Below, one piece after another: positions 1-27,721 of a DNA stretch of 64,000 nt. The DNA is from Celeribacter persicus (GTDB lineage Bacteria; Pseudomonadota; Alphaproteobacteria; Rhodobacterales; Rhodobacteraceae): assembly GCF_003050785.1 (NCBI RefSeq), contig NZ_QAOH01000003.1, positions 1-64,000 on the forward strand, written 5' to 3'. The translations under genes were made by a program, and so were the position numbers. Under the pieces are notes generated by a model. That model was given only the letters and a program-made list of their open reading frames with translations, ran no database searches and was not told where the DNA came from. Position 1 is the first letter of the stretch. Each line of letters starts with the position of its first letter.

Positions 1-95
1 GGCGTATCTCAAACACGCTGGAAGCAGAGTTTTGCGTCGATGCGCTGAACGAAGCCATCCATAAGTTCGGCCCGCCAGAAATTATGAACACCGAC

Positions 96-381
96 AGTCA
101 TACGATTGATACCAGTTCTCGGATGGTTTGACTCAAACACTGATCGACCATTCGCTGGGTTGGTGCCGCATGGCTTCTCGGTTTGGTTTGACCCAAACAG
201 CGACCGACCTGACACGTGTCTTTCCCTGGACCTGTCGATCATCCGGGAACGCCTGCGGCGAGCTTGTCTCAAAGGTGCTGCCGTGACCCAAGAAGGGCCT
301 GACCATCCGGTCTCATGACTGTCCTGTCCCTGCATTCATCGAGGCGATGCTCGTTCTCTTGCCGCAGAAAAGGATCGTCAA
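96..381 (+). ncRNA. candidate IS110 bridge RNA region (left-end noncoding segment)
   Basis: IS110-group elements are known to encode a structured bridge RNA in the noncoding DNA upstream of the transposase that guides target and donor pairing. This segment has the right place and size. It holds two imperfect direct repeats of about 25 bp (near 125-149 and 186-210), each starting with a small hairpin (GTTTGACTCAAAC and GTTTGACCCAAAC). AACAGCGACC at 196-205 matches 9 of 10 bases of the reconstructed left target AACACCGACC, and GCTGCC at 277-282 is complementary to GGCAGC in the right flank. These matches are short and could be chance. The RNA ends are unknown. Confidence 0.35.
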
Positions 382-1461
382 ATGGCCAACAACCCAGAAA
401 CGTCTCACGTCGTCGGAGGCGTAGATACCCACAAGGATTTACATGTTGCAGCTGTCGTAGACCATTACGACCGGGTGCTCGGCACCGAGAGCTTTCCCAC
501 GACCCGTCATGGCTATCGCTTGATGTTGAACTGGATGCGGTCTTTCGGGGATCTGCAACGCGTCGGCATCGAATGTTCGGGCAGCTATGGCGCAGGGTTA
601 CTGCGCTATTTGCAGACAGCTGGCGTCGAAGTTCTGGAGGTGGTTACTGCCCCTGACAAAAATGAGCGCCGTCGCCGCGGCAAGAACGACGACTTCGACG
701 CAGAAAGTGCGGCCCATGCCGCCTTCACCGAACGGCGCACTGTCACACCGAGAAGCCGTGACGGTATGGTCGAAAGCCTCCGTGTTCTAAGGGTTTGCCG
801 AAAGACAGCCGTTCAGGCGCGCCGCATTGCTTTGCAAATGATCCAGACGACGATCGTCTGTGCCCCCGACAGATTGCGAGAACCCCTGCGTAAGATGACG
901 CGAATGCAGTTAATCCGCACACTGGCAGCTTGGCGGCCCGATCTCACGGCCTTTCGGCAGATCGAAGAAGCCTATCGCATCGCGCTCAAATCCCTGGCGC
1001 GGCGTTACCTCGAACTGCATGACGAGATCGCCGATCTGGATGACATGATTGAAGCCATCGTCAAGGACCTTGCTCCTGAGCTGCTCAAACAGACCGCGAT
1101 CGGCCTGAACAGCGCGGCGCAATTATTGCTGACGGCTGGCGACAATCCAGAGCGGTTGAAATCCGAAGCCAGCTTTGCCGCCCTTTGCGGCGTCAGTCCC
1201 GTGCCAGCGTCTTCTGGCAAAACTGTCAGGCACAGGTTGAACAGAGGCGGTGATCGCGCAGCCAATAGCGCGATCCACATTATCGCCATCGGACGTTTGC
1301 GACTGGACCCACGCACTCAAGCCTACGTTGCCAAACGGATCGCTGCCGGAAACTCAAAGCTGGAAGCCATTCGCAGCCTCAAACGTTACATCGCGCGCGA
1401 AGTCTTCGGCATCATCATGCGCCGCTACAAAGAGATCAACCAGACACAAATCGCCGCTTGA
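382..1461 (+). CDS. IS110-family transposase
   Basis: A 359-residue recombinase of the IS110 family. The N-terminal DEDD (RuvC-like) domain shows D15 in GGVDTHKD, E64 in GIECSGSYG and D103/D106 in KNDDFDAE. The C-terminal Transposase_20 domain carries the catalytic serine in ASSGKT (about residues 276-281), followed by HRLNRGGDRAANSAIH. Length and both domains are normal for the family, so it is probably functional. The start at ATG 382 has AGGA upstream. It is the only gene of the element and reads in the same direction as the disrupted IS3 transposase. Confidence 0.95.
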   Translation: MANNPETSHVVGGVDTHKDLHVAAVVDHYDRVLGTESFPTTRHGYRLMLNWMRSFGDLQRVGIECSGSYGAGLLRYLQTAGVEVLEVVTAPDKNERRRRGKNDDFDAESAAHAAFTERRTVTPRSRDGMVESLRVLRVCRKTAVQARRIALQMIQTTIVCAPDRLREPLRKMTRMQLIRTLAAWRPDLTAFRQIEEAYRIALKSLARRYLELHDEIADLDDMIEAIVKDLAPELLKQTAIGLNSAAQLLLTAGDNPERLKSEASFAALCGVSPVPASSGKTVRHRLNRGGDRAANSAIHIIAIGRLRLDPRTQAYVAKRIAAGNSKLEAIRSLKRYIAREVFGIIMRRYKEINQTQIAA

Positions 1462-1830
1462 CTCTTAGAAGGGCGTCCAGGGCAGCCAGTTCACGTCATT
1501 CGCCTGGACGGACCGGTTGCGCCGATCCGGCGTGCGTATCTCCATGGATGGCAAGGGGCGGTTCCTCGACAACATCTTCGTGGAACGGCTCTGGCGATCT
1601 CTGAAATACGAATGCGTTTATCTGCATGCATGGGAGACCGGATCAGAGGCCAAAGCTGGCGTCAGTAAGTGGATCGCGTTCTACAACCACAAGCGCCCTC
1701 ATTCCGCCCTTGGCGGCCAACCACCCGCTGTGATCTATTGGCAGCGAAATGAAACAACCCAACCCGATCAGCAGGTGCAAAGAGTAGCTTAAACTACGCC
1801 AGATATTGTCCAATATATGGGGAGTAGCTC

Positions 1831-3225: not shown

Positions 3226-4401
<1,176 letters not shown>

Positions 4402-18593: not shown

Positions 18594-18785
18594 AAGCGTC
18601 TAAACCTTTCGAATTTTCGCGAGCGACAATCACCGTTGGGTGCCGGCGGCTGTGCCCTGACGAAACAGAGGGGTTCGGTCTATTCCTGCCCCCGACCCAA
18701 AGGGGGCTCCCGACCTTTGAACCTCTCCTGAGAAAACACCCTTTCACGCGGCGCTGCCGCAAAGGCCCTTTCTAAGACAGGTTAA

Positions 18786-24063: not shown

Positions 24064-24139
24064 TGGCAGGGGCAGCAGGGTTCGAACCCGCGACCTACGG
24101 TTTTGGAGACCGTCGCTCTACCAGCTGAGCTATACCCCT
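24064..24139 (-). tRNA. tRNA-Trp (anticodon CCA)
   Basis: On the minus strand a full cloverleaf folds: acceptor AGGGGTA with TGCCCCT, D-arm GCTC/GAGC, anticodon stem ACGGT/ACCGT around CTCCAAA (anticodon CCA), T-arm GCGGG with TTCGAAC, and an encoded 3' CCA after discriminator G. It lies upstream of secE, the usual trnW-secE-nusG arrangement. Confidence 0.97.

Positions 24140-26545: not shown

Positions 26546-27721
<1,176 letters not shown>

What the first reader, a model, noticed from the sequence alone, without database searches (positions are those of the whole stretch)
96..381. Possible bridge RNA with repeated hairpin modules and target matches
The noncoding left end has two imperfect 25-bp direct repeats, each with a GTTTGAC-CAAAC hairpin. 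AACAGCGACC (196-205) matches 9/10 bases of the left target, and GCTGCC (277-282) pairs with the right flank. This could be the target-binding loop.
Basis: partly seen in the sequence, partly recalled or inferred. Interest (0 to 1): 0.55.

Follow-up and report, generated by a model that had tools for sequence, protein, structure and literature searches.

The report
Bridge RNA with two target guides
This is the guide RNA of a bacterial jumping gene (IS110 family, ISEc21 group) that homes on the active-site codons of other transposase genes; unusually, it seems to carry two interchangeable copies of its left target-reading segment, so one RNA may direct insertion into two kinds of site.

Summary
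Window 96-1477 is a complete IS110-group element (Tnp 68% identical to ISEc21) inside an IS3-family transposase gene, at AACACCGAC|CAGGG. Its left end encodes a bridge/seekRNA: a known kind. The proposed right guide (277-282) fails across 44 copies (p=0.85); the right guide is 224-229 (46 copies, p<5e-5). Missed: the repeat is two left target guides, M1 (136-144) and M2 (196-204). In relatives M2 is usually 'HSD-type' and M1 often 'NTD-type'. Among copies with HSD-type M2, targets are 22 NTD, 6 HSD when M1 is NTD-type, but 0 NTD, 26 HSD otherwise. Two identical copies in one genome sit in one site of each kind. M1 tracks NTD targets (p=0.0002) where M2 does not (p=0.34); M2 tracks HSD targets. 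The 5' strands of both modules keep covarying complementarity to one shared 3' strand, suggesting two mutually exclusive target loops sharing one right guide. My searches found no description of this. Nothing here is experimental, copies share ancestry, and only 3-4 independent contrasts exist on the tree, none against.

The parts
96..1477 (+). Complete IS110-group (ISEc21 group) insertion sequence, 1382 bp, LE AGTCAT... to RE ...AGAAGGGCGTC
   Evidence: LE and RE junctions recur across relatives; flanks are two halves of an IS3-type rve gene
1..95 (+). Left part of interrupted IS3-family transposase gene; left target = 87-95 AACACCGAC
1478..1792 (+). Right part of the IS3-family transposase gene (Pfam rve_3); right target CAGGGCAGCC
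382..1461 (+). IS110-type DEDD recombinase, 359 aa; D15, E64, D103, D106 and S277/S278 invariant in an alignment of 13
   Evidence: Pfam PF01548 and PF02371; 68% to ISEc21 Tnp; invariant columns; profile matches IS621 8wt6 E=5.6e-16 and ISCro4 9t56 E=1e-15
111..115 (+). 5' stem-loop closing strand ACCAG, pairs with 160-164 TTGGT
   Evidence: RNAalifold on 40 copies
116..132 (+). Module 1 5' strand (5A), complementary to the shared 3' strand 234-249
   Evidence: 94.3% of cells paired, 35 double-change cells vs 9.4 in shuffles, 0/500; duplex energies
136..144 (+). Module 1 left target guide (LTG1) AACACTGAT
   Evidence: tracks NTD-type flanks; 9 of 9 with wobble to this copy's own flank
166..174 (+). 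Outer stem of module 2 target-binding loop, pairs with 251-258
   Evidence: window fold
175..192 (+). Module 2 5' strand (5B), alternative partner of 234-249
   Evidence: with the outer stem: 93.0% paired, 63 double-change cells vs 19.3, 0/500
196..204 (+).
   Evidence: 8 of 9 to this copy's own flank; M2 tracks flanks over 57 copies, p=5e-5, and HSD-type flanks in particular
211..220 (+). Self-complementary GACACGTGTC between left and right guide; possible inner hairpin
   Evidence: sequence; GTGT part invariant in 40 relatives; not the pairing chosen by the folds
224..229 (+). Right target guide (RTG) CCCTGG, pairs with CCAGGG of the target
   Evidence: 46 copies, 4.22 of 5 pairs vs 3.83 shuffled, 0 of 20000
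234..249 (+). Shared 3' strand of the target-binding loop stem, pairs with 5A or 5B
291..298 (+). Left donor guide AGAAGGGC, identical to RE 1467-1474
   Evidence: extended motif AGAAGGGC-N-TGAC found in 52 of 58 copies; nearly invariant, so covariation was not tested
315..320 (+). Right donor guide ATGACT, reverse complement of the LE start AGTCAT (96-101)
   Evidence: 57 copies: last 5 nt pair 4.93 of 5 vs 4.51 shuffled, 0 of 20000
1458..1463 (+). TTGACT, candidate -35 of a promoter formed when RE and LE join in the circle
   Evidence: position by sequence; junction promoter reported for ISEc21 by others (PMC11187229); inferred here

Best explanation
The left end of this ISEc21-group IS110 element is transcribed as a bridge/seekRNA. 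It pairs with the target through a left guide (same sense as the top strand up to GAY) and a right guide (224-229), and with the element's own ends through donor guides (291-298, 315-320). The RNA holds a second left-guide module (M1, 136-144), paralogous to the ordinary one (M2, 196-204), inside its 5' stem-loop. The 5' strands of both modules are complementary to the same 3' strand (234-249). The RNA can therefore form one of two mutually exclusive target-binding loops, M1+RTG or M2+RTG, and so recognise two left-target sequences. In many relatives these are two codon forms of the IS3-family catalytic motif, AAY-ACN-GAY (NTD) and CAY-TCN-GAY (HSD). Supported by sequence statistics: both modules act as left guides. 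Inferred: transcription through M1, the loop switch itself, and whether it occurs by refolding or by processing of a long RNA (with M1) to a short one (M2 only). In the window's own copy both modules are NTD-like, so its two guides are close variants.
For: Target class follows M1. With HSD-type M2: M1 NTD-type, 19 NTD and 5 HSD; M1 not NTD-type, 0 NTD and 25 HSD; p=2.3e-9. With five copies found afterwards: 22/6 vs 0/26, p=5e-10. With the right guide held at CCCTGG/CCTTGG: 19/5 vs 0/6, p=0.0008. Double dissociation: for NTD targets (n=22) M1 tracks the exact flank (p=0.0002), M2 does not (p=0.34); over HSD targets with HSD-type M2 (n=32) M2 tracks the flank (0 of 20000 shuffles). L149 and L150, identical over 1382/1382 bases in one genome, sit in HHSD|RGSQY and FNTD|QGSQF. 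Host genomes do not favour NTD sites: 10 of 12 insertions NTD vs 5.95 expected, P=0.010. Both helices covary. In L010, L011, L091 and L136, where M1's guide is broken, its helix is weak (-8.6 to -13.8 kcal/mol against a 40-copy mean of -19.0). A and B states lie within 8 kcal/mol in 30 of 35 copies with unbroken M1.
Against: Copies are related: on the recombinase tree (quick method) M1 type differs in only 3 independent contrasts on starred branches (4 on all); target goes the same way in 2.5 on average, the other way in 0, no difference in 0.6; sign test median p=0.25. The Fisher values overstate independence; several rows share a record or near-identical RNA. M1 also shows a weak signal within HSD targets (n=17, p=0.023). 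L092's record has 5 NTD and 0 HSD free sites but its insertion is HSD although its M1 is NTD-type. L138 has a broken M1 but a strong M1 helix (-22.2); L141 has an intact M1 and an NTD target but a weak one (-10.3). M2 matches NTD flanks at about 6 of 9, which may be tolerated. Folds favour the M2 state in 26 of 35 copies; the M1 loop would lose the outer stem or need a pseudoknot. The RNA of 96-381 folds no better than shuffles (z=-0.91; 100-280 gives z=-2.46). A 58-nt RNA suffices for ISEc21, which has no M1. No RNA or transposition data exist here for M1-bearing elements.
Confidence: 0.73

Rival explanations
1. Ordinary single-guide bridge RNA: only M2 (196-204) plus the RTG select the target. 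M1 is a leftover of a tandem duplication, or structural RNA in the 5' stem-loop, and its likeness to targets is inherited from M2.
For: ISEc21 works without M1 and other relatives lack it; M2 matches NTD flanks at about 6 of 9; M1 lies in the 5' stem-loop; in the window M2 alone matches the target 8 of 9; folds mostly favour the M2 state.
Against: In the 58 copies, NTD insertions occur only with an NTD-type M1 or NTD-type M2; M1, not M2, tracks NTD flanks; the M1 helix fits the 3' strand where 5B fits poorly, e.g. L085, L098, L135; identical copies in both site types.
Confidence: 0.17
2. M1 is mainly a promoter element (-35-like TTTGAC/TTGACT) for the bridge RNA and the guide likeness is a by-product.
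For: M1 carries TTTGAC; distant relatives without a guide-like M1 (L024, L028) keep TTGACTC followed by an AT-rich stretch here.
Against: Conservation continues through AACACNGATCGACC, where a spacer would be free; several M1-bearing copies read TTTGTC or TTTGCC; ISEc21 forms a promoter at the RE-LE junction and the window has TTGACT in RE; it does not explain the link with target class.
Confidence: 0.05
3. Target class is set by the right guide or by host supply of IS3-type genes, and M1 type is only correlated through descent.
For: The copies with broken M1 L010, L091 and L136 also have a changed RTG (CCGCGG), and L010 and L091 sit at CGCGG sites; few independent contrasts; free-site pools are small.
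Against: RTG-matched comparison still 19/5 vs 0/6, p=0.0008; whole-genome host pools do not favour NTD sites, P=0.010; L096's record has 3 NTD and 0 HSD free sites but the insertion is HSD, L142's likewise 2 and 0.
Confidence: 0.09

Closest known systems
ISEc21 / ISMch6 group of IS110 (seekRNA; Siddiquee et al. 2024, PMC11187229, sections 12-14 read, other passages by search)
   Same: 68% identical transposase; RNA in the upstream noncoding region; bottom-strand guide 5' of top-strand guide; same RE end AGAAGGGCGTC; target at the codons around the second D of IS3-family DDE transposases. L096 is annotated as ISMch6 family.
   Different: ISEc21 has one left guide (CACAGCGAT, L143) and no module 1; the paper text seen does not mention a duplicated guide. 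The ISMch6-family copy L096 does have a module 1 (CACAGCGAT) beside its M2 (CACTCTGAT).
IS621 bridge RNA (Durrant et al. 2024, PMC11208160, sections 6, 7 and 12 read plus passages; Hiraizumi et al. 2024, PMC11208158, passages)
   Same: 5' stem-loop, target-binding loop with LTG/RTG, donor-binding loop with LDG/RDG; DEDD recombinase with a profile match to IS621.
   Different: IS621 has one target-binding loop with one LTG and a CT core shared by target and donor; here left flanks end in GAY and the right end in GTC or similar, with no shared dinucleotide visible, and there are two LTG modules.
ISCro4 transposase (PDB 9t56)
   Same: Recombinase profile match E=1e-15.
   Different: Its RNA was not compared here.

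Membership tests
IS110 family recombinase | DEDD RuvC-like domain (PF01548) plus Tnp domain (PF02371) with catalytic serine | tested here: met
   Pfam 73.7 and 56 bits, above cut-offs; D15, E64, D103, D106, S277 and S278 invariant in 13; profile hits IS621. Which of S277/S278 is catalytic was not tested.
IS110 group (not IS1111) | Long noncoding end upstream of tnp, short right end, no long subterminal inverted repeats | tested here: met
   286 nt before the CDS vs 16 nt after its stop; lengths only, no inverted-repeat search was run
ISEc21 group | Transposase related to ISEc21 and insertion at the second-D codons of IS3-family genes | tested here: met
   68% identity; target AACACCGAC|CAGGG in an rve gene; same RE end
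Bridge RNA / seekRNA | Left and right target guides complementary to target flanks, covarying with them across copies | tested here: met
   M2 vs LT, 57 copies, p=5e-5; RTG vs RT, 46 copies, p<5e-5
Bridge RNA / seekRNA | Donor guides complementary to the element's own ends | tested here: met
   RDG vs LE start, 57 copies, p<5e-5; LDG matches RE but is nearly invariant
Bridge RNA / seekRNA | RNA expressed, bound by and required for its recombinase | not testable with these tools
   needs RNA-seq and transposition assays
Bridge RNA (IS621-type) | Single target-binding loop with a single LTG | tested here: not met
   two LTG modules, both with guide-flank statistics and both with covarying stems; statistical, not experimental
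Bridge RNA (IS621-type) | Core dinucleotide shared by target and donor | tested here: inconclusive
   left flanks end GAC or GAT, right ends mostly GTC or ATC; the circle junction was not observed
Rfam RNA family | Match to a curated covariance model | tested here: not met
   no match at gathering score in the element; two weak unrelated hits, E 0.21 and 5.6

The most novel reading that the evidence does not exclude
A naturally bispecific, switchable bridge RNA. One guide RNA carries two left-target guides that compete for one shared 3' strand and one right guide, so the element has two programmed targets. Long RNA (with M1) and processed short RNA (M2 only) could encode different specificities, making RNA processing a target switch. 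The guide pairs would cover alternative codon sets of one conserved active-site motif (NTD/HSD; in the ISMch6-family copy L096, the Halomonas copy L103 and the Microvirga copy L128, AGY-serine and TCN-serine forms), keeping the element able to live in diverse IS3 hosts.
Probability: 0.55. Interest if true: 0.85.

Novelty: new variant of a known kind. Interest (0 to 1): 0.74.

Why it matters
Bridge RNAs are being developed as programmable recombination tools; the published RNAs seen here have one target loop each. A natural RNA with two alternative left guides would show that target choice can be multiplexed within one molecule, would explain why one element is found in two kinds of site, and gives a ready test of whether a bridge RNA can switch loops by refolding or processing. 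It also suggests how a transposon living in other transposons widens its range by guide duplication.

Tried and rejected
Rejected: right guide at 277-282. Rejected as main structure: a stand-alone module 1 hairpin (120-128 with 146-154): 89.2% paired, but double-change cells 9 vs 5.8 shuffled, reached by 56 of 500. Rejected as a conserved feature: GTTTGAC-CAAAC hairpin in module 2, 4 of 40. Rejected: M1 as an imprint of the flank, since the same M1 recurs beside different flanks.

Led nowhere: Rfam; single-sequence PDB search; viral contig scans; a screen for similar repeats in 33 more distant IS110 left ends gave two p=0.01 cases (L037, L067), about as chance would (plain shuffles); a literature search for bridge recombinases from 2025 on.

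Rows counted and dropped: of 158 loci held, 63 were counted (58, five more), 14 were repeats by the script's key and 81 were left out. Left out: the more distant relatives (about 45% identity), copies cut by contig ends, and of close relatives L021, L076, L084, L117 and L139 (left junction lost or unreadable), L119 and L151 (left end not found by my pattern, not pursued), L146 and L153 (cut), and L144, L145, L147, L154, L155 (seen again from another source). L157 and L158 are the EF-Tu loci. L011 counts as 'other' target. One search keeps 80 of 112 relatives; the plasmid search showed 60 of 1233 records, of which I fetched 21. Guide CACAGCGAT and targets CACAGTGAT and CATAGCGAC were assigned to the HSD class by hand, by codon. 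The extraction pattern demanded GAY before the left end; a pattern without that demand gave GAC or GAT in 73 of 75 matches, repeats included, the two others being second matches in L016 and L142. L102's right guide was misread (which lowers the score) and corrected. L020's M1 counts as NTD-type but its helix is weak; with it moved, 22/5 vs 0/27, p=2e-10. In one search rows under 200 residues were left out of the tree, and L140 is a long, unreliable branch; L140's left end is also atypical.

Full report
WHAT IS THERE. The window's left edge holds an IS3-family transposase gene interrupted by an IS110-group insertion sequence. The element runs from 96 (AGTCAT) to 1477 (AGAAGGGCGTC), 1382 bp. Left flank AACACCGAC (87-95) and right flank CAGGGCAGCC form the NTDQGS codons of the IS3-type gene. 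The single gene, 382-1461, encodes a 359-aa recombinase with both IS110 Pfam domains, D15, E64, D103, D106 and S277/S278 invariant in an alignment of 13, and a profile match to IS621 and ISCro4 structures. It is the only match in its draft genome.

KNOWN RELATIVE. The transposase is 68% identical to that of ISEc21 (ISEc21 locus L143). Siddiquee et al. 2024 (PMC11187229; sections 12-14 read) report that ISEc21 targets the codons around the second D of IS3-family DDE transposases, that its upstream RNA is required, and that a 74-nt seekRNA (58 nt suffices) carries a bottom-strand match 5' of a top-strand match. They note ISMch6 as a naturally redirected relative; locus L096 here is annotated as ISMch6 family. 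So the kind of system is known, and the window element is a new member of that group.

GUIDES, CHECKED ACROSS COPIES. I gathered 80 loci from a one-genome-per-species collection, plasmid loci, and loci from whole-genome searches. Left end and left flank were read for 58 copies, later 63. Donor guides: AGAAGGGC (291-298) equals the RE terminus (motif in 52 of 58), and ATGACT (315-320) is the reverse complement of the LE start and changes with it in relatives (57 copies, 4.93 of 5 pairs vs 4.51 shuffled, 0 of 20000). Right target guide: CCCTGG (224-229) against the right flank, 46 copies, 4.22 of 5 vs 3.83, 0 of 20000. The left guide at 196-204 (M2) is supported: over 57 copies M2 matches its own left flank better than shuffled flanks (7.33 vs 6.87 of 9, p=5e-5). 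Matches allow RNA U with target-strand G and RNA G with T.

THE REPEAT IS A SECOND LEFT GUIDE. The 125-149 / 185-209 repeat (21/25, 0 of 150 shuffles) is a duplicated module: 5' strand, TGACYC or similar, 9-nt guide, CGACC. In many relatives M2 reads CAYTCCGAT and M1 reads AACACYGAT. These are the HSD (CAY TCN GAY) and NTD (AAY ACN GAY) forms of the IS3-family motif. Among copies with HSD-type M2: M1 NTD-type, 19 NTD and 5 HSD targets; M1 of HSD-type, broken or absent, 0 NTD and 25 HSD (Fisher p=2.3e-9). Five more copies found after the idea was formed fit it (22/6 vs 0/26). Holding the right guide at CCCTGG or CCTTGG gives 19/5 vs 0/6, p=0.0008. Where M1 is degenerate but M2 has become NTD-type (L014, and the near-identical L100 and L106), 3 of 3 targets are NTD. 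In L001 (window), L027, L086, L087 and L135 both modules are NTD-type and 5 of 5 targets are NTD.

DOUBLE DISSOCIATION. Within NTD targets of elements with HSD-type M2 (n=22), M1 tracks the exact flank (8.05 vs 7.87, p=0.0002) while M2 does not (p=0.34). In the slightly larger set with any M2 (n=27) the whole M1 signal lies at the codon third positions (p=0.0004). Over HSD targets with HSD-type M2 (n=32), M2 tracks the flank (8.06 vs 7.63, 0 of 20000); M1 shows a weaker signal there (n=17, p=0.023). In the 28 copies with NTD-type M1 and HSD-type M2, M1 is the better match for 22 of 22 NTD targets and M2 for 6 of 6 HSD targets, which partly follows from how the classes are defined.

ONE RNA, TWO SITES. 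L149 and L150 are two copies in one genome of the family sampled around the host of L010, a Rhizobium. They are identical over all 1382 bases. L149 sits in CATTCCGAC|CGCGG (HHSDRGSQY when the flanks are joined), L150 in AACACCGAT|CAGGG (FNTDQGSQF). L150's left flank equals M1 9 of 9; L149's matches M2 8 of 9.

HOST SUPPLY. Free sites were counted in 46 host genomes or records with exact patterns. Fourteen copies with NTD-type M1 and HSD-type M2 lie in whole genomes counted there; two of these (L004, L005, both NTD) have no free site. For the other 12, 10 insertions are NTD where pools (occupied site added) predict 5.95, P=0.010. Plasmid records were not used in this test. L096's record (3 NTD, 0 HSD free) and L142's (2, 0) carry HSD insertions, as their guides predict; L092's (5, 0) also carries an HSD insertion, with NTD-type M1 and HSD-type M2, so M2 can win where NTD sites abound. 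The pools are small.

STRUCTURE. On 40 distinct M1-bearing left ends, the module 1 5' strand (116-132) pairs with 234-249 in 94.3% of cells, with 35 double-change cells against 9.4 in shuffles (0 of 500). The module 2 5' strand plus an outer stem (166-174/251-258) pairs in 93.0%, 63 vs 19.3 (0 of 500). The number of pairs with any double change is less striking (5 vs 3.4, reached by 71 of 500; 9 vs 7.0, reached by 51 of 500). Sliding the partner drops pairing to at most 55.9% and 48.6%. Both helices use the same 3' strand, so they exclude each other (a pseudoknot keeping the outer stem is possible). Mean duplex energies are -18.97 (M1) and -17.34 (M2) kcal/mol, against -8.9 and -8.4 with shuffled strands and -16.4 and -14.1 with other copies' 3' strands. 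In L010, L011, L091 and L136, with broken M1 guide, the M1 helix is weak (-8.6 to -13.8). Exceptions: L138, broken by one base, keeps it (-22.2); L141, intact with an NTD target, has a weak one (-10.3), as does L020 (-6.6). Constrained folds put the two states within 8 kcal/mol in 30 of 35 copies with unbroken M1; 26 favour M2 and 9 favour M1. RNAalifold prefers the M2 loop and places M1 in a 5' stem-loop closed by ACCAG/TTGGT. The 286-nt window RNA as a whole folds no better than shuffles (z=-0.91); 100-280 gives z=-2.46 and 156-260 z=-1.94.

PROPOSED MECHANISM. Transcription from a promoter formed by joining RE (TTGACT, 1458-1463) and LE in the circle, as reported by others for ISEc21, would place M1 in the RNA. 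The RNA would form either loop M1+RTG or M2+RTG. A short processed RNA like the ISEc21 74-mer would keep only M2, so length could set specificity. Transcription, loop formation and switching are inferred. That both modules act as guides rests on the statistics above.

LIMITS. Copies share ancestry: the recombinase tree gives 3 independent contrasts on starred branches (4 on all branches); over random pairings the target goes the predicted way in 2.5, never the other way, and does not differ in 0.6; too few for significance (median p=0.25). Some rows come from the same record or have near-identical RNA. Classes were set by consensus distance by me, three strings by hand. No expression or transposition data exist here for M1-bearing elements. 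My confidence in the best explanation was lowered by 0.01 on recheck for the L092 and L141 cases.

LITERATURE. Searches: bridge RNA/IS110 terms, IS110 in IS3, ISEc21, bispecific or two-guide terms, bridge recombinase 2025 on (no paper). Read: PMC11187229 sections 12-14 and passages; PMC11208160 sections 6, 7, 12 and passages; PMC11208158 passages. None of the text seen describes two left target guides in one RNA. Supplementary files and subscription papers were not seen, so prior description cannot be excluded.

Noticed in passing
window 3226-4401 (-): An EF-Tu (tuf) gene is interrupted by one in-frame TAA after residue 145. A second tuf copy with an open frame lies at 26549-27280 (-), 99% identical over the 244 residues compared. 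Pseudogene or sequencing error; not resolved.
   Followed up: partly
window 18625-18716 (-): Rhodo-rpoB leader RNA (RF03074, 58.1 bits); besides a tRNA at 24067-24139 (-) the only Rfam hit in the window at gathering score.
   Followed up: no
   Followed up: yes
L110, L114, L118, L121, L128 (Microvirga lotononidis plasmid): Multi-copy relatives. Four have guides CACGGCGAT/CACGCTGAT and three of these sit in CACGCGGAC sites, which looks like natural retargeting; L128 (M1 CACAGCGAT) sits in CACAGTGAT.
   Followed up: partly
L010, L011, L091, L136: Rhizobium, Ochrobactrum and Agrobacterium copies with broken M1 guide and right guide changed to CCGCGG; where the right flank is known it is CGCGG (L010, L091) or CGAGG (L011).
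   Followed up: partly
left and right junctions of relatives: Left flanks end in GAC or GAT while the element's right end is mostly GTC or ATC, so no shared core dinucleotide of the IS621 kind is visible.
   Followed up: partly
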